Made by a program: the position numbers and the translations under genes
Notes under the pieces: model-generated
Database searches by the model: none
Seen by the model: only the letters and a program-made list of their open reading frames with translations
What the model was told of the DNA's origin: nothing
Assembly (NCBI GenBank): GCA_902619485.1
Contig: CACNEF010000001.1
Location: 434,001-498,000, forward strand
Direction of reading: 5' to 3'
From: an uncultured SAR116 cluster alpha proteobacterium
Lineage (GTDB): Bacteria > Pseudomonadota > Alphaproteobacteria > Puniceispirillales > Marisalimonadaceae
Length of the DNA: 64,000 nt
Shown here: positions 44,807 to 62,291 of the stretch, one piece after another
How the letters are laid out: every line of letters starts with the position of its first letter
Position numbering within the stretch: position 1 is the stretch's first letter

Positions 44807-45496
44807 CTATTTTAAATAATATAAACCATTTTTATTTTTTAATGATAAAGAGAAATTTTTATCTATTCTATTTAATTTTTGCTTTAACCTATAAATATGT
44901 GTTTCTAGAGTATGTGTATTAATTTTTTCTGAAAATCCCCAGATTTTAATTAGTAAATCTTTTTTTAATATTTCTTCATTTTTTTTATTATAAAGGTAAA
45001 TTAACAGATTATTTTCTTTTTCGGTTAAGTGTTCTGTACAGTTTGTTTCTAAATTAGAAATAGTTTTTTTTGAGGGAGAATAAATAATATGATCCATTAA
45101 ATATTTATTAGAATTGTTAATAGTTTCTGAATTCTTAATACTATCTAAATGATTAAGCAGAGTTATTAATTTAAATGGTTTTTCTAATAAAAATAATTTT
45201 TCTACATTATCAATCATTTTTTTTAAATAAGGTTCATGATAAGCTATAATATTGTTATGTTCACTATTGGTTTGAAGTATTTTAATAAAATTTTTGCTGT
45301 CGTTACCTAAGTCATTTAGATTTAAAATGTAAACATTAAAATTTCTATTTATTACAATCTCATTCAGTTCTTCATAACTTTCTGTAACAAAAAGGTCATA
45401 ATTATTATAATTTAAAATTTGATAATGAAGAATTGAGTTTAAAATTTTTTCCTTTTCATATAATAATATTGATATGTCTTGTTTCAAAAAAAACAC
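44807..45496 (-). CDS. OmpR-like transcriptional regulator with degenerate receiver domain
   Basis: The 229-aa protein has a CheY-like N-terminal domain and an OmpR-type winged-helix C-terminus (LTEKENNLLIYLYNKKNEEILKKDLLIKIWGFSEKINTHTLETHIYRLKQKLNR). The receiver lacks the phospho-acceptor: where the family has the Asp of D-x-x-x-P the sequence is YILNLNDLG, with Asn at residue 59, and the upstream acidic pair reads YEKE. The Lys-Pro of the LEKPFKL segment remains. Phosphorylation-independent control is therefore likely. It is divergent from ribA by 23 bp. Confidence 0.82.
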   Translation of the reverse strand: MFFLKQDISILLYEKEKILNSILHYQILNYNNYDLFVTESYEELNEIVINRNFNVYILNLNDLGNDSKNFIKILQTNSEHNNIIAYHEPYLKKMIDNVEKLFLLEKPFKLITLLNHLDSIKNSETINNSNKYLMDHIIYSPSKKTISNLETNCTEHLTEKENNLLIYLYNKKNEEILKKDLLIKIWGFSEKINTHTLETHIYRLKQKLNRIDKNFSLSLKNKNGLYYLK

Positions 45497-52133: not shown

Positions 52134-53170
52134 AAATAGATCCTTTTTTTTATGAAAATAATATAAAAAATAACCTTGAAAACATAAACATAATTTTTTT
52201 TCATGGTACCAACGTTGGCTTAGTTGACCTTTTATATAAAAAAACTTTAGAATTTCTTGAAATAGATACAAATGATCCTTTCAATGTCTCAAAAATAGAC
52301 GGTAACGAATTCAAAGATAATCCAACAGTACTTCATGACAATATAAATACTTTGAGTGTTTTTTCAGAAAAAAGATCTATACTTTTAGATCTAATGCACG
52401 TTTCTGTAAATAAAAACTTAGAAAGTATTATTTTAGAAAGTGTGAAAACTGAAAATGAAAATTATTTACTTTTAATAAAAGCTAAAAACTTAAAGGTAAA
52501 TTCTTTTATAAAATATTTTCAAAATTTAAATAATGCTATTCTAGTTTCTTGTTATGAAGAAAAAATAAACACCATTCAATCTAAATTATCTAATTTATTT
52601 TCTAAACATAAAATTAATTTCAAAGAAGATTTTTTAAAAAATTTAATTTTTAAATTTAGTGAAAATTCACTAATTAATGAAATGGAACTTGAAAAACTGG
52701 ATATCTTTTTAACGGAAAATAAAAATGTTACTGAAGAAATGATTTTCTCTATTATTTCACAAAATGATGATATTAATTTAAATAAAATTATTGAAAATTG
52801 CTCAAATGGCTATCCTAAAGAAGCAATAACAATTTTCGAAAATATTTATGAAAATCAAACAACAAGTCTGACTCTAATAAGAATGTTTTTTAATCACTTT
52901 AAACTATTAGAAAAAATTTTATTACTTTTTGAGAATAATAAAAATTTGATAAATGTTATTGAAAATATTAAACCGCCAATTTTCTTTAAAAAAAAGAAAT
53001 TTATAATTTTTCAATGTAGAGTGTGGAATTTAAAATTAATTAATATTATATTAACACGCTTAATTGATCTTGAACTAAAATGTAAATTAAATCATACAAT
53101 TGAAAAAACTCTTTTATTACAGTTCTTATTGTCAACTTCTGTTCTTGCAAGAAATAAAATTAATTCTTAA
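52130..53170 (+). CDS. holA: DNA polymerase III subunit delta
   Basis: The delta subunit opens the beta clamp in the clamp loader. The 346-aa protein has the N-terminal DNA_pol3_delta features (IIFFHGTNVGLVDLLYKKTLEF, FNVSKIDGNEFKDNP, SVFSEKRSILLD). It begins at TTG 52130, sharing three bases with the lptE stop. The body is very Lys/Asn-rich and diverged. Position after lptE, and facing parB, is the conserved alphaproteobacterial order. It overlaps parB tail to tail by 11 bp. Confidence 0.88.
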   Translation: MKIDPFFYENNIKNNLENINIIFFHGTNVGLVDLLYKKTLEFLEIDTNDPFNVSKIDGNEFKDNPTVLHDNINTLSVFSEKRSILLDLMHVSVNKNLESIILESVKTENENYLLLIKAKNLKVNSFIKYFQNLNNAILVSCYEEKINTIQSKLSNLFSKHKINFKEDFLKNLIFKFSENSLINEMELEKLDIFLTENKNVTEEMIFSIISQNDDINLNKIIENCSNGYPKEAITIFENIYENQTTSLTLIRMFFNHFKLLEKILLLFENNKNLINVIENIKPPIFFKKKKFIIFQCRVWNLKLINIILTRLIDLELKCKLNHTIEKTLLLQFLLSTSVLARNKINS

Positions 53171-54017
53171 ATTTTTCAATTATAAAGTTAAATTCTTCTA
53201 GGTTTTTACATTCTAGCTTTATTGTTCCAGTTTTTTTTAAACTATTAAAATCAATATTTATGACTAATCCTGTTATTTCTGTTAGTTCTTTTTCTAAATT
53301 AATGATATCTATATTTTTAACTTTATTTTTGGGAGATTTTGTATTTCCTTTTTTTATGAGTTTTTCAATATCTCTAGAATTAAGTTTGTTTTTTAAAATT
53401 ATTTCTAAATAAACGTCAGAGTCTTTATGACCTATAAGTGGTCGGACTTGGCCAATAGTAAGTTTTTTTTGTATTAGTAATTCTTTAGCCTTAACTGATA
53501 ATGATAATAATCTAATAATATTACCAATATAAGACCTAGATTTTCCGACTGCTTTTGAAATATCTTCTTGAGTATAATTATAATTAATAAGAAGAGACTG
53601 ATACCCTTCTGCTTCTTCAATAGGATTTAATTCAGATCTTTGGATATTTTCAACTAAAGATAATTCAGCAACTTTTTCATCTTTTATATCATCTCTAATA
53701 ATAGCTGGAATTTCATGTATATTTGCTAGTTGACATGCTCTCCACCTTCTTTCGCCAGCAATTATATAATATTCATTTTTAAATGTACCGTTAGATTTTA
53801 TTACTACTGGTTGAATTATGCCCTGTTTTTTTATTGAATTTGATAAAGACTCTAGTTCCTCTTTATCAAAAATTTTTCTTGGTTGCCATGGTCCAGGTTT
53901 GATAAACTCTATTGGTACCATTTTGAAATCATCAGTTTTTTTTTCTACCTCAGCACCTAAAAGACTTGAAAGACCACTTCCAAGGCCAATAGGTCTTGCA
54001 TTTTTCTTTTGTTTCAT
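53160..54017 (-). CDS. parB: Chromosome-partitioning protein ParB
   Basis: ParB is a CTP-dependent clamp that loads at parS and spreads. The 285-aa protein opens with a short basic segment (RPIGLGSGLSSLLG), then the conserved IKPGPWQPRKIFDKEELESLSNSIKKQGIIQPVV, AGERRWRACQLA (CTP site) and ENIQRSELNPIEEAEGY, then the helix-turn-helix (EDISKAVGKSRSYIGNIIRLL). The C-terminal dimerisation domain is short. It is co-oriented with parA (4-bp overlap). Confidence 0.96.
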   Translation of the reverse strand: MKQKKNARPIGLGSGLSSLLGAEVEKKTDDFKMVPIEFIKPGPWQPRKIFDKEELESLSNSIKKQGIIQPVVIKSNGTFKNEYYIIAGERRWRACQLANIHEIPAIIRDDIKDEKVAELSLVENIQRSELNPIEEAEGYQSLLINYNYTQEDISKAVGKSRSYIGNIIRLLSLSVKAKELLIQKKLTIGQVRPLIGHKDSDVYLEIILKNKLNSRDIEKLIKKGNTKSPKNKVKNIDIINLEKELTEITGLVINIDFNSLKKTGTIKLECKNLEEFNFIIEKFKN

Positions 54018-54799
54018 TTTAGATCTTTCTCCTGATTAATGATTTCACCCGCCAATGAGGCATATGCTTGAGATCCCGGACATGAAATATCATACATCAA
54101 CACTGGTTGACCATAACTAGGTGCTTCAGAAATTCTTACGTTTCTTGGAATTATAGTTTTAAAAACTTTATCATTAAAATGATTTTTAACATCATTTGAT
54201 ACCATTTCACATATTTTATTTCTTTTATCATACATGGTTAGGAGTATACCTTGAAGAGTAATTTTATTATTAAAATTATTTTTAATTGACTCCAATGTTT
54301 TCATAAGTTGAGTTAAGCCTTCCAATGCATAAAATTCAGTTTGAAGAGGTACAATTAAACTTTTTGCTGCACATAAGGCGTTCAATGTAAGCAACCCTAG
54401 AGAAGGTGGACAATCAATAAATATGTAATCGTAAAAGTCGCTAATTTCTCTAATTAAATCACGAATTTTAAATTCTCTATTTTTAATATCAACTAATTCT
54501 TGTTCAAGAACTGAAAGATCTGGTGAGGTAGGAATGATATCTAATTTCGGAATCATAGTTTTTTTGATTGAAACATTAATATTATCCTTACCACAAATTA
54601 TAGAATATAAATCTTTATCTCTTTGATCATATTTTATGCCAAAGCCAGTACTAGCATTTCCTTGTGGATCAGCATCAATGATAAGTGTTTTTTTATCACA
54701 AGCTGCCATAGCTGTTGCCAAATTTATTACAGTAGTAGTTTTTCCTACACCACCCTTTTGATTTGCAATAGCAATTATTTGTGTAACTTTATTTGTCAT
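54014..54799 (-). CDS. parA: Chromosome-partitioning ATPase ParA
   Basis: A Walker-type ATPase of 261 aa that drives ParB-parS movement. The deviant Walker A is IANQKGGVGKTTTVINL with the signature lysines at 15 and 20; DADPQGNAS and the Walker B-like DYIFIDCPPSLGLLTLNAL follow. The parA-parB pair sits downstream of rsmG (11-bp overlap) in the mnmE-mnmG-rsmG operon leading away from the candidate origin. Confidence 0.97.
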   Translation of the reverse strand: MTNKVTQIIAIANQKGGVGKTTTVINLATAMAACDKKTLIIDADPQGNASTGFGIKYDQRDKDLYSIICGKDNINVSIKKTMIPKLDIIPTSPDLSVLEQELVDIKNREFKIRDLIREISDFYDYIFIDCPPSLGLLTLNALCAAKSLIVPLQTEFYALEGLTQLMKTLESIKNNFNNKITLQGILLTMYDKRNKICEMVSNDVKNHFNDKVFKTIIPRNVRISEAPSYGQPVLMYDISCPGSQAYASLAGEIINQEKDLK

Positions 54800-55445
54800 T
54801 TTTAATATCTAACACATCTACTTTATTTATGTATAAAATTTTACCATGTATATCTGTTATTGAAGGATACTCTTTGAAATTAATTTTTTTATTTTTTCTT
54901 AAATCTAATATTTCAGAGAAATAAGATTTTCCCTTTAAAAACAATAGCTTAGGTAGTTGTTTTTCTACAGATGATTTGTTTATAAAAATCTCTACATAAT
55001 CAATAAGCTTGCTTAATGGCGCCAATGCTCTGCAAGTAATTAAATCAACATTTATGAAGCTTAAATCTTCAATTCTACAGTTATGTATAATTATATCTGT
55101 TTCTGTTAGCATTGCAATTTCTTTTAAAAACACACACTTCTTATAGTCTGATTCAACTAGATGGATATTTTTTTTCCCCATTATTGCAAGCACCAAACCT
55201 GGGAAGCCGGCCCCAGAACCAAAGTCTATGATGTTTCCTTCTATATCTTTAACAAACTTGTATAATTGTGCTGAATCTAATATATGCCTTTCCCAAATAC
55301 TTTTTACAGTACTTTTACTAATTAAGTTTATTGAATTTTGCCACTTAATAAGAATTTTATGAAACACACATAATTTTTCATACGTTTCACGTGAAACAAA
55401 TACATGTGAACAAAATTTATCATAGGTATTGATGTTCGTTAGCAA
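54789..55445 (-). CDS. rsmG: 16S rRNA (guanine527-N7)-methyltransferase RsmG
   Basis: Also called GidB. The 218-aa protein has the SAM motif [17 protein letters not shown] and [13 protein letters not shown], typical of RsmG, with [12 protein letters not shown] further on. The N-terminal codons contain one of the two parS sites as coding sequence (FVSRETY). It overlaps mnmG by 26 bp and parA by 11 bp, so translation is tightly packed. Confidence 0.95.
55383..55398. promoter_or_regulatory. parS site 1 (15 of 16 matches)
   Basis: CGTTTCACGTGAAACA matches the universal parS palindrome TGTTTCACGTGAAACA except at the first base. It lies within rsmG, 584 bp from parA, and 6.0 kb from the candidate origin. 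ParB in this operon is expected to bind here. Confidence 0.92.
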
Positions 55446-58656: not shown

Positions 58657-59916
58657 TTATTTATTCATGGCTCTAAAGAAATCTTCATTAGATTTGCTTT
58701 GCTTTAGTTTATCTGACAGAAAATCCATTGCGTCTACCGGCCCCATTTGAATTAAAATTCTTCTCAAAACCCACATTCTAGATAATGTGTCTTTTTCTAC
58801 CAAAAGCTCTTCTTTTCTTGTGCCTGACTTAGTTACATCAATAGCCGGGAAAGTTCGTTTGTCTGATAATTTTCTGTCAAGTATTACCTCGCTATTTCCA
58901 GTGCCTTTAAATTCTTCGAAAATTACCTCATCCATTCTTGAGCCTGTTTCAACTAATGCGGTGGCAATAATGGTTAATGAACCTCCATCTTCAATGTTTC
59001 TTGCTGCACCAAAGAATCTTTTTGGCCTTTGAAGAGCGTTTGCATCAACACCTCCCGTTAAAACTTTGCCACTAGACGGTATTACAGTGTTGTAAGCTCT
59101 TGCTAACCGGGTTATGGAATCTAATAAAATCACTACATCACGTTTGTGTTCAACTAGTCTTTTAGCTTTTTCTATAACCATATCGGTTACTTGTACATGT
59201 CGAGAAGCGGGTTCATCAAATGTAGAACTAATAACTTCTCCATTAACAGATCTTTGCATATCTGTAACTTCTTCAGGTCTTTCGTCAATTAATAAAACAA
59301 TAAGATAAATCTCAGGATGATTTTTTGATATTGCTTGAGCTATTGACTGTAACATCATTGTCTTACCTGTTCTAGGTGGTGCTACAATTAAGCCACGTTG
59401 TCCTTTGCCCATAGGCGCAACCATTTCTACGACACGAGTAGTAATATCTTTGTTGTTTGGATCAAATTCAGTTTCAAAGTTAATTTTAGCTTGAGGATAA
59501 AGAGGTGTTAAATTATCAAAATTTATTCTGTGACGAACAGAGTCCGGGGATTCAAAATTTATATTTTCAACTTTAAGTAATGCAAAATATCTCTCTCCAT
59601 CCTTAGGGGCTCTAATTTGACCCTCTACAGTGTCACCCGTACGAAGGCCAAATTTTCTTACTTGATTTGGAGAGATATAAATATCATCTGGTCCTGCGAG
59701 GTAGTTAGATTCAGGTGACCTTAAGAAACCAAATCCATCAGATAAAACTTCAAGTACTCCATCTCCATATATCGCAATATCATTGTCAGCAAGTTTTTTC
59801 AAACAGGCAAACATCATATCTTGTTTTCTTAAAGTGCTTGCGTTTTCTATTTCTAAACTCTCAGCATAAGTTAATAAATCTGATGGGTTCTTTGCTTTAA
59901 GTTCTTTTAAATGCAT
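58657..59916 (-). CDS. rho: Transcription termination factor Rho
   Basis: The 419-aa hexameric RNA helicase shows an N-terminal Rho_N segment ([21 protein letters not shown]), the RNA-binding cold-shock-like region ([23 protein letters not shown]), P-loop [28 protein letters not shown], and the conserved [21 protein letters not shown]. This is the usual form without large insertions. In Alphaproteobacteria rho lies close to hemE near the origin, as seen here. Confidence 0.98.
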
Positions 59917-60381: not shown

Positions 60382-61419
60382 TTAAACTTTCAAGTTATAA
60401 TTTCTTACAATACTAATAACTTCTTTTACGTTATCAATTTTACAATCTGGAGTTAAACCGTGACCAACATTAAATATAAATCTTCTGTCTTTCATTATAT
60501 CTAAAATAGTTAATACATTCTCCCTTAAATGATTACTATGTGATGGAATGAGAGACGCTGGATCAAGATTACCTTGTAAAGCAACCTCTTTATTAATATA
60601 CTTTATTGCCCAACAAAGATCAACAGACCAATCTAAAGCAATACAATCAACTTTACTTTCAAAAGAATATTTTACAATAGATTCTCCTGCTTTAAATGGA
60701 AACCCAATAACAGGAACAAGAATTTTTCTAGATCTTAAAATATCTACGATCTTAGCCGTTGGCCTTATGGCACAATCATCAAAAAAGTTATTAGGTATCA
60801 TATGAGACCAAGAGTCGAATATCATCAAGATATCTGCACCTGCTCTAGCTTGCATTTCTAGCTTATCAGCAACATAAATTGTAAGTGTTTCAATTAACTC
60901 CATAAACCATTCATAAGAACTCCACAGGGCTTTCCTGGTATTAATGAAGTCTTTACTTCCTCTTCCTTCGACCATATAGCAAGCTAGAGTCCAAGGAGCG
61001 CCAGCAAAACCAATTAAACCAAGGGATTTTGGTAATTTCTCTCTGAGATAACTTATTGAATTTTTTAAAGGTTCAAGTTTAGAGCTTAAACATATATTTC
61101 GAAGAATTTTAGTTTCACCTGGGATCATAGGTTTCAAAGAAGGACCAAAATTTTTAGCAAATTTGACGTCTCTATCCATAGCCCAGGGTATCATTAAAAT
61201 ATCTGAAAATATTATGGCAGCATCAAGATCATAATATTTTAAGGGTAGAGTTGTACTTTTAATTATTAGATCCTCATTTAAACAAAAATTAATAAAATTT
61301 TTTTCATTTTTTCTAATTTGAAGGTATTCAGGTATATGTCTTCCAGCTTGTCTCAAAAACCATATTGGTACAGAAGCCTCTTTATTTTTAAGTACTTTAC
61401 TTATTAAGTTATCTGACAC
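60382..61419 (-). CDS. hemE: Uroporphyrinogen decarboxylase
   Basis: HemE makes coproporphyrinogen III in heme synthesis. The 345-aa sequence has the active-site arginine motif PIWFLRQAGRHIPEYLQIR near residue 20, ILMIPWAMDRDVKF, GFAGAPWTLACYMVEGRGS and NVGHGLTPD. HemE next to the origin is the marker used to locate oriC in Caulobacter and relatives. Its start faces the DnaA-box cluster and coaE is divergent on the other side. Confidence 0.97.
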   Translation of the reverse strand: MSDNLISKVLKNKEASVPIWFLRQAGRHIPEYLQIRKNEKNFINFCLNEDLIIKSTTLPLKYYDLDAAIIFSDILMIPWAMDRDVKFAKNFGPSLKPMIPGETKILRNICLSSKLEPLKNSISYLREKLPKSLGLIGFAGAPWTLACYMVEGRGSKDFINTRKALWSSYEWFMELIETLTIYVADKLEMQARAGADILMIFDSWSHMIPNNFFDDCAIRPTAKIVDILRSRKILVPVIGFPFKAGESIVKYSFESKVDCIALDWSVDLCWAIKYINKEVALQGNLDPASLIPSHSNHLRENVLTILDIMKDRRFIFNVGHGLTPDCKIDNVKEVISIVRNYNLKV

Positions 61420-61688
61420 AATAGTATTACTTTATTTAAAGTTTGATGATGATGATGCTTCTTATAAAGTTGTGAATAAAAAAAAAAATTATTTTATCCA
61501 CAATATATTTAAAAAAATGTTATTGAATTATATAGGTAAATAGAGTTATTCACAAATTTTAATTTTTTAAATTCAAAATTATAAACATGTAATTAAGTTC
61601 TGGATAAATATTAATATTAAAAAAAAAATTGGATTTACAAAGATAAAATAATGATTATCAACAATTTATTCACTTAAGAAATTTATAA
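61420..61688. other. Candidate chromosomal replication origin (oriC)
   Basis: A 269-bp AT-rich gap between divergent hemE and coaE holds DnaA-box-like 9-mers: TTATCCACA at 61494-61502 (exact), TTATTCACA at 61471-61479 (minus strand) and 61546-61554, TTATCCAGA at 61599-61607 (minus), TTATCAACA at 61655-61663 and TTATTCACT at 61666-61674. Long A/T runs between them could be the unwinding element. Nearby parS sites, parAB and the hemE-coaE-dnaQ context strongly support an alphaproteobacterial origin. Initiation itself is inferred. Confidence 0.85.
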
Positions 61689-62291
61689 ATGATAATAATT
61701 GGCATAACAGGATCAATAGGTACAGGTAAAACAACAGTATCTAAAATGTTAAAAATATTAAAAATACCAGTTTTCGATTCAGACAAAAAGGTAAAAGAAA
61801 TACTAGATAATAATCATCTTGTTATTAACAAGGTATCAAAAATCTGGCCTGAAGTTGTATCGATCAATCAAAATCAAAGAAAGATCAATAAAGTACTGTT
61901 AGGTAATAAAATATTTAAGAACAAAAAAGAAAGAAAAAAACTTGAAGATATAATTCACCCACTTGTTGAAAAAGAAAGAAATATGTTTTTACAGAGTTCT
62001 ACAAATTTTCGGATAGTTGGACTTGATATTCCATTGTTATATGAGATAGGTTTGGATAAAAAATGTGATTATGTTTTTTTGATGCATACATCTAAGAAAA
62101 TTCAAAAAAATAGAGTTTTAATGAGGCCAAATATGACTGAGAAAAAATTTGAACTTATCAATAACGTACAATGGAGTTTTGAAAAAAAAGCAAAAAGAAA
62201 ACCTTTTATAATAAGTACGTCATTTGGTAAATTAATTACCTTTATTCTAATTTTGTATTATTTACTAAAAATTAAATTTAGAGTTGAATAA
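61689..62291 (+). CDS. coaE: Dephospho-CoA kinase
   Basis: CoaE phosphorylates dephospho-CoA in the last step of CoA synthesis. The 200-aa protein begins MIIIGITGSIGTGKTTVSKML, a P-loop, then PVFDSDKKVKE, LEDIIHPLVEKE, VGLDIPLLYEIGL and RVLMRPNMTEKKF, the LID-type region, all in CoaE order. The C-terminal 40 residues are unusually hydrophobic (FGKLITFILILYYLLKI). It reads away from the candidate origin and dnaQ follows 1 bp later. Confidence 0.9.
   Translation: MIIIGITGSIGTGKTTVSKMLKILKIPVFDSDKKVKEILDNNHLVINKVSKIWPEVVSINQNQRKINKVLLGNKIFKNKKERKKLEDIIHPLVEKERNMFLQSSTNFRIVGLDIPLLYEIGLDKKCDYVFLMHTSKKIQKNRVLMRPNMTEKKFELINNVQWSFEKKAKRKPFIISTSFGKLITFILILYYLLKIKFRVE

What the first reader, a model, noticed from the sequence alone, without database searches (positions are those of the whole stretch)
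61420..61688. Candidate oriC between hemE and coaE
At least six DnaA-box-like 9-mers, including one exact TTATCCACA and two TTATTCACA, occur in 269 bp with long A/T runs. Genes read away on both sides and parAB plus two parS sites lie within 8 kb. The hemE-oriC location matches Caulobacter-type origins. I see no GANTC site in the gap, although a CcrM gene is in the window, which would be unusual for a CcrM-controlled origin.
Basis: partly seen in the sequence, partly recalled or inferred. Interest (0 to 1): 0.72.

Follow-up and report, generated by a model that had tools for sequence, protein, structure and literature searches.

The report
Replication origin with relaxed opening code
The gap is very probably the chromosome replication origin of a marine SAR116-type bacterium, and the short repeat that seems to mark where its DNA is pulled open allows A or T at a position where the known code has A, a variation that could be tested directly.

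Summary
The 269-bp hemE/coaE gap has three exact TTATNCACA and four weaker DnaA boxes, the densest cluster in its 728-kb contig. The contig's purine-skew minimum falls inside the gap (window 61437). In two relatives' contigs the minima lie at or within 1.4 kb of this locus. coaE is the divergent neighbour in 40 of 41 family loci that reach past hemE (the other is cut off).

In relatives the repeats read TAG, TTG or ATG. The G hardly changes, while the middle base switches between A and T many times. The published trio has a conserved middle A, contacted by Asn187 of B. subtilis DnaA; here that residue is Tyr, while G-contacting residues are kept or conservatively changed. Some other alphaproteobacterial hemE loci have similar modules, many do not. 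I read it as a relaxed trio code, a new variant of a known kind, from sequence only.

GANTC is absent from 41 of 41 gaps; CtrA was not recognised in seven family genomes.

The parts
61420..61688 (.). oriC: 269-bp intergenic gap between divergent hemE and coaE, GC 0.152
61443..61457 (+). DnaA-trio-like run TTG ATG ATG ATG ATG (G at 61445, 61448, 61451, 61454, 61457); inferred strand-opening site
61458..61470 (.). 13-bp spacer between last trio G and inverted box (published BUS peak 10-13 bp)
61471..61479 (-). DnaA box R1 TTATTCACA (reads TGTGAATAA on the trio strand), anchor of the BUS-like module
61494..61502 (+). DnaA box R2 TTATCCACA (exact)
61546..61554 (+). DnaA box R3 TTATTCACA
61579..61587 (+). 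weak DnaA box R4 TTATAAACA; a box-like TTATTNACA in many of the 16 aligned relatives
61582..61596 (.). conserved element TAAACATGTAATTAA: ACATGT core (61585-61590; 5 of 6 bases invariant, one nearly so, in 16 aligned gaps) inside a one-mismatch match to TTAAN7TTAA; role unknown
61599..61607 (-). weak DnaA box R5 TTATCCAGA
61655..61663 (+). weak DnaA box R6 TTATCAACA
61656..61668 (+). IHF-consensus match WATCAANNNNTTR overlapping R6/R7 (consensus recalled)
61666..61674 (+). weak DnaA box R7 TTATTCACT
60382..61419 (-). hemE (uroporphyrinogen decarboxylase)
61689..62291 (+). coaE (dephospho-CoA kinase)
   Evidence: PF01121
58639..58654 (+). parS-like site, exact TGTTTCACGTGAAACA (consensus recalled)
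55383..55398 (+). parS-like site, 1 mismatch
54014..54799 (-). parA-type ATPase
53160..54017 (-). parB
   Evidence: TIGR00180
37071..38153 (-). CcrM-type DNA methylase (N6_N4_Mtase + RAMA)

Best explanation
The gap is the chromosomal oriC. Shown: box cluster, skew minimum, parABS nearby, conservation of position and of sequence blocks. Inferred: DnaA fills the boxes; DnaA on the inverted box R1, across a 13-bp spacer, is fed onto the + strand of the G-every-third-base run 61443-61457, and an oligomer with one protomer per trinucleotide captures bases and opens the duplex, as in the B. subtilis basal unwinding system (BUS). Further inferred: the trio code is relaxed here. G is needed (DnaA Lys and Glu in place of B. 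subtilis Arg202 and Glu228), but the middle base may be A or T because Asn187, which reads the middle A in B. subtilis, is Tyr.
For: oriC. Conservation: coaE beyond hemE in 40 of 41 family loci with upstream sequence, the other being cut off. Module: >=3 NNG trios in 38 of 41 gaps; 10-14 bp to the best inverted-box match (sought at 4-20 bp) in 37 of those 38. One place on both strands of C1 at >=4 trios and <=1 box mismatch, 0 in reversed controls. The four G are invariant in 16 of 16 gaps (of 41, chosen by me) in a MAFFT alignment that knew nothing of trios. On a hemE tree of 41 loci, G columns change 2, 1, 2, 0 times and middle columns 3, 10, 7, 12 times, always A/T. DnaA: Asn187->Tyr, Arg202->Lys, Glu228 and Glu183 kept, by alignment to 8btg; MYQFI in 30 of 30 family DnaA loci fetched, of 44 genomes with DnaA; Tyr 27, Phe 2 of 29 rows class-wide. 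Geometry and contacts from passages and sections of PMC8287927 and PMC10721633.
Against: No marker-frequency or binding data. The pure GC-skew minimum is 33.7 kb off. Trio runs were picked by a G-in-third rule, so G constancy is partly by construction (one search is not), and three rows were anchored by hand. The window's own ATG run could be phased with A in the middle (GAT GAT GAT), though the invariant G would then sit at the uncaptured position. L028 has no good inverted box (4 mismatches), L004 and L187 only 3-mismatch ones. Three of 41 gaps have broken runs. With looser settings C1 has other matches (>=4 trios, <=2 mismatches: 2 places vs 1 in the reversed controls; <=3: 10 vs 15). In the wider class only 19 of 89 hemE upstreams pass >=4 trios plus box <=3 mismatches, against 2 on the reverse strand, and none of the three same-order genomes (L191, L192, L196) nor two Puniceispirillum loci (L071, L072) passes. 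Class-wide DnaA rows are from the 30 best-scoring loci, 28 of which aligned. In B. subtilis C works nearly as well as A in the middle, yet C is never seen in this family's trios, so the rule here is not simply a looser form of that one.
Confidence: 0.8

Rival explanations
1. It is oriC, but the run is read E. coli-fashion: T-rich single strand (TTGT/TTATT motifs) is bound back by DnaA on the boxes (ssDUE recruitment), not by a BUS filament reading trios.
For: TTG runs contain TTGT, a motif reported for E. coli DnaA (PMC10797057, passages). In T. maritima three TAG repeats are bound by a ssDUE-recruitment mechanism (PMC10316083, passages).
Against: Pure ATG and pure TAG runs contain no TTGT; what is constant is the G phase, A/T at the other two positions and the usual 12-13-bp distance to an inverted box.
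Confidence: 0.2
2. The period-3 run is a hemE or coaE regulatory or coding element unrelated to replication.
For: It lies 24-38 bp upstream of the hemE start in a divergent promoter region.
Against: TAG runs in relatives are stops in that frame; the module sits at the skew minimum next to DnaA boxes; 1 of 58 non-alphaproteobacterial hemE upstreams has such a module.
Confidence: 0.05
3. The origin is elsewhere, for example beside dnaA (C1:558262) or on another contig, and this is a DnaA-titration cluster.
For: Pure GC-skew minimum at window 27734; 55% of the assembly was not tested for skew; two TTATNCACA sites lie 1.5-1.8 kb upstream of the DnaA domain match.
Against: Purine-skew minimum inside the gap, minima at the same locus in two relatives, unique box cluster and module.
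Confidence: 0.04

Closest known systems
Caulobacter/Rickettsia hemE-COG1806 oriC
   Same: hemE is one neighbour; AT-rich gap with DnaA boxes and an IHF-like site; parABS nearby
   Different: coaE instead of COG1806 (not found in this 78%-complete genome); three near-consensus DnaA boxes rather than only weak G/W-boxes (PMC4468827 and PMC10797057, passages); no exact CtrA consensus in this gap and no CtrA recognised in seven family genomes; no GANTC
B. subtilis basal unwinding system (DnaA-box + spacer + DnaA-trios)
   Same: order and strand (5'-trios-spacer-inverted box-3'), 13-bp spacer, at least 4 repeats in most gaps, near-constant G
   Different: middle base A or T instead of A; one good box; no GC-rich cluster in the window's spacer; DnaA Tyr at the Asn187 position
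T. maritima eTrio (three TAG repeats)
   Same: tandem TAG repeats occur in several relatives
   Different: different box arrangement; here TTG and ATG replace TAG

Membership tests
bacterial chromosomal oriC | cluster of DnaA boxes denser than anywhere else | tested here: met
   C1; whole assembly, TTATNCACA only
bacterial chromosomal oriC | cumulative skew minimum | tested here: met
   purine-skew minimum in the gap; GC-skew minimum 33.7 kb off but nearly tied (C1 only); two relatives agree
bacterial chromosomal oriC | replication starts there in cells | not testable with these tools
   no reads or cultures
Caulobacter-type hemE origin | hemE flank | tested here: met
Caulobacter-type hemE origin | COG1806/RP001 on the other side | tested here: not met
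   coaE instead; PF03618 not found in the own 78%-complete genome
Caulobacter-type hemE origin | CtrA sites TTAAN7TTAA | tested here: inconclusive
   no exact site in the own gap; 13 of 41 gaps have one or two. At the conserved ACATGT element the own gap has a one-mismatch match, and 16 of 41 gaps have 0-1 mismatches there, but 1895 of 2000 shuffles of the own gap also hold a site at 0-1 mismatches somewhere
Caulobacter-type hemE origin | GANTC sites in the origin | tested here: not met
   0 in 41 of 41 gaps
DnaA-trio BUS | at least 3 trinucleotides 5' of an inverted DnaA box within about 16 bp on the same strand | tested here: met
   definition from PMC8287927
DnaA-trio BUS | adenine in the middle of each trio | tested here: not met
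   in the G-fixed phase the middle is T in 98 and A in 57 of 155 trios of 38 gaps; for the window's own run a shifted phase would give A
DnaA-trio BUS | DnaA opens the strand in vitro | not testable with these tools
   needs a biochemical assay

The most novel reading that the evidence does not exclude
A good part of the Alphaproteobacteria carry a DnaA-trio with a relaxed code, 5'-(A/T)(A/T)G-3', in which only G is obligatory. It goes with a Tyr/Phe in place of Asn187 in alphaproteobacterial DnaA, so initiator and single-strand code have changed together between bacterial lineages. This would be a natural form of the 'deviant DnaA-trio without middle adenine' that PMC8287927 only suspected.
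Probability: 0.45. Interest if true: 0.75.

Novelty: new variant of a known kind. Interest (0 to 1): 0.58.

Why it matters
How a bacterial initiator picks the strand and place to open was only recently tied to one repeat code with a conserved middle adenine. Here relatives swap A and T at that base many times while G stays, and the DnaA residue that reads the adenine differs. Nature has in effect run part of the mutational series, and purified DnaA could test it. It may also help origin-finding programs that demand a middle A. Separately, an origin without GANTC in a CcrM-bearing family where CtrA was not recognised would be a stripped-down relative of the Caulobacter origin.

Tried and rejected
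GANTC absence as a striking feature of this one gap: rejected, since 0.27 sites are expected and 35 of 49 equally AT-rich tiles also lack it. Across 41 gaps 0 vs 12.0 expected by composition is suggestive, but it is not corrected for kinship or for the depletion in the genome (959 vs 2045 in C1).

CtrA control: no exact TTAAN7TTAA in the own gap. On rechecking I found that the conserved ACATGT element lies inside a CtrA-like palindrome: exact in 5, one mismatch in 11 and two mismatches in 11 of 41 gaps. In such AT-rich DNA a one-mismatch site somewhere is nearly certain by chance, so this neither shows nor excludes a CtrA-type site. NF045991 gives at most 141.5 bits in 7 family genomes, two of them 99-100% complete, against 246 in a same-order genome. 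None reaches the model's cut-off of 350, the model was built for Rhodobacterales and only 1 of 14 control genomes passes it, so loss is possible, not proven.

In-frame TGA reported in some hemE matches: taken for the normal stop, because the BLAST alignments of those loci end at residues 341-345; not pursued. The 'reversed' control is no control for the family, because reversal keeps a period-3 run. Covariation of the DnaA residue with the trio middle base inside the family was not possible because MYQFI does not vary. The search for related loci served to name the group (SAR116; a genus label AAA536-G10 is recalled) and gave comparison loci. Literature: I found no paper on middle-T trios or on trios of Alphaproteobacteria in the listings; most listed papers were not opened, and one search listed one (PMC5043019), not opened. 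The tree figure of PMC8287927 marks the five proteobacterial classes, so BUS predictions for Alphaproteobacteria may stand in its supplement, which I could not see.

Rows dropped: L003, L011, L177 (no upstream sequence). The class set is 89 of 238 genomes with hemE, the best by hemE score. Class DnaA is 28 of the 30 fetched loci of 57 genomes, plus own.

Full report
Context. The window is contig C1:434001-498000 of a 1.62-Mb, 43-contig, 78%-complete assembly. The closest named hemE relatives are uncultured SAR116-cluster alphaproteobacteria and SCGC AAA536-G10.

The 269-bp gap between hemE and coaE holds DnaA boxes at 61471 (-), 61494 (+), 61546 (+), 61599 (-) and 61655 (+) at no more than one mismatch to TTATCCACA, plus weaker ones at 61579 and 61666. 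The window as a whole has no excess of such sites (26 vs 22.3 expected); the excess is local. On C1 the gap ranks first for exact TTATNCACA (3 in 269 bp; next 2) and for one-mismatch boxes (5; next 3). No other three of the 65 TTATNCACA in the assembly lie this close together.

Skew. Tiling C1 (727,698 bp, 2,500 N; 45% of the assembly) gives a cumulative purine-skew minimum at C1:495437 = window 61437, inside the gap. The pure GC-skew minimum is at window 27734, 85 units below the value at the gap on a range of 4444; within 10 kb of the gap the local minimum is at window 61020. In G040:C2 (266,677 bp) the GC minimum is at 135715 and the purine minimum at 134762, with the hemE start at 136112. 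In G006:C13 (first 120 of 139 kb) the purine minimum is at 59638, in the gap upstream of hemE (match from 59899), and the GC minimum at 59338. parA/parB and two parS-like sites lie within 8.3 kb.

Conservation. HemE was found in 43 of 58 family genomes. Of 44 loci examined, 41 (from 41 genomes) have upstream sequence, and in 40 coaE is the divergent neighbour at 205-290 bp; the 41st is cut off. COG1806 (PF03618), the Caulobacter neighbour (PMC1914354, passages), is not found in the own genome.

The unnoticed module. Beside hemE, + strand 61443-61457 reads TTG ATG ATG ATG ATG, then 13 bp, then TGTGAATAA, an inverted DnaA box. In 38 of 41 gaps a run of at least three NNG trinucleotides is found, with 10-14 bp to the best inverted-box match in 37 of them (box mismatches 0-3); L028 has 9 bp to a 4-mismatch site. 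The 155 trios are TTG 59, TAG 54, ATG 39, AAG 3; C was allowed but not seen. Three gaps (L176, L179, L183) have runs broken by A for G. At >=4 trios and <=1 box mismatch the module occurs once in C1 on both strands and not in reversed controls; at <=2 mismatches there are 2 places against 1 in the controls, and at <=3 it is no longer distinct (10 vs 15). In a MAFFT alignment of 16 of the 41 gaps the G at 61448, 61451, 61454 and 61457 are invariant. On a hemE tree of 41 loci, G columns change 2, 1, 2 and 0 times; middle columns change 3, 10, 7 and 12 times, always between A and T. The G rule was used to pick runs and three rows were anchored by hand, so only the A/T-only rule there, are free of that choice.

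What it resembles. PMC8287927 (section 13, first part of section 14, and passages; [quoted passage not shown] PMC10721633 (passages) reports that G is contacted by Arg202 and Glu228, the middle A by Asn187 and Glu183; in B. subtilis T or G in the middle impairs opening and growth while C works about as well as A. Its base numbering gives the same order on the strand as here: trios, spacer, boxes. B. subtilis and H. pylori trio sequences were seen in passages of PMC10316083.

The initiator. The own DnaA aligned to B. subtilis DnaA of 8btg has Tyr at Asn187, Lys at Arg202, Lys at Asn196, and keeps Glu183, Glu228, Ile190 and Ile193. The 30 family DnaA loci fetched (of 44 genomes with a match) share MYQFI. 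In 29 rows (28 class loci plus own) the 187 position is Tyr 27, Phe 2; Lys at 202 and Glu at 228 in 29 of 29.

Wider class. Of 89 hemE upstreams (of 238 genomes with hemE, the best by score), 31 have a run of at least four NNG near hemE (controls: reverse strand 19, reversed 11, complement 11) and 18 a run of at least five (controls 4, 2, 1); middle bases of the latter are T 53, A 39, C 3. With a box at no more than three mismatches: 19 of 89 vs 2 on the reverse strand; 2 of 15 further alphaproteobacterial loci and 1 of 58 non-alphaproteobacterial ones. Against breadth: the three same-order genomes (L191, L192, L196) and two Puniceispirillum loci (L071, L072) do not pass. Two loci of one genus (L221, L230) show trios, a 5-bp spacer, TGTGGATAA and then CGGGGATGA, that is, two co-oriented box-like sites beside the trios, like the arrangement described for B. 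subtilis.

GANTC and CtrA. GANTC is absent from 41 of 41 gaps, with 12.0 expected by composition. For one gap this means little. [quoted passage not shown] A CtrA model scores at most 141.5 bits in seven family genomes and 246 in a same-order genome. A conserved ACATGT element lies within a CtrA-like palindrome (one mismatch in the window, 0-1 mismatch in 16 of 41 gaps), which by itself is within chance for such AT-rich DNA.

Mechanism and confidence. That the gap is oriC I hold at about 0.95 from converging sequence evidence. That the run is the opening site used BUS-fashion I hold at about 0.75, and that the middle base is functionally free between A and T at about 0.5. Filament assembly, base capture and tolerance of T are inferences, not shown.

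Noticed in passing
61582-61596: ACATGT core inside a CtrA-like palindrome, kept at the same place in much of the genus (16 aligned gaps; 0-1 mismatch to TTAAN7TTAA in 16 of 41); binding factor unknown.
   Followed up: partly
61420-61688 and 40 relatives: GANTC absent from 41 of 41 family origin gaps although a CcrM-type gene is in the window and GANTC is depleted about twofold in C1.
   Followed up: partly
G000, G004, G007, G010, G039, G040, G044: No protein in these seven family genomes scores like CtrA though a same-order genome has a much better match; possible loss of CtrA in this SAR116 family.
   Followed up: partly
44807-45496 (-): Response-regulator-like protein with a degraded-looking receiver part and a winged-helix C-terminus.
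   Followed up: partly
L221, L230, L211, L201, L250: Other alphaproteobacterial hemE upstreams carry TTG/TAG/ATG trios beside TGTGGATAA- or TGGGGATTA-like sites.
   Followed up: partly
61656-61668: IHF-consensus match overlapping two weak DnaA boxes beside coaE; present at a similar place in 13 of 41 gaps, anywhere on that strand in 16 of 41.
   Followed up: partly
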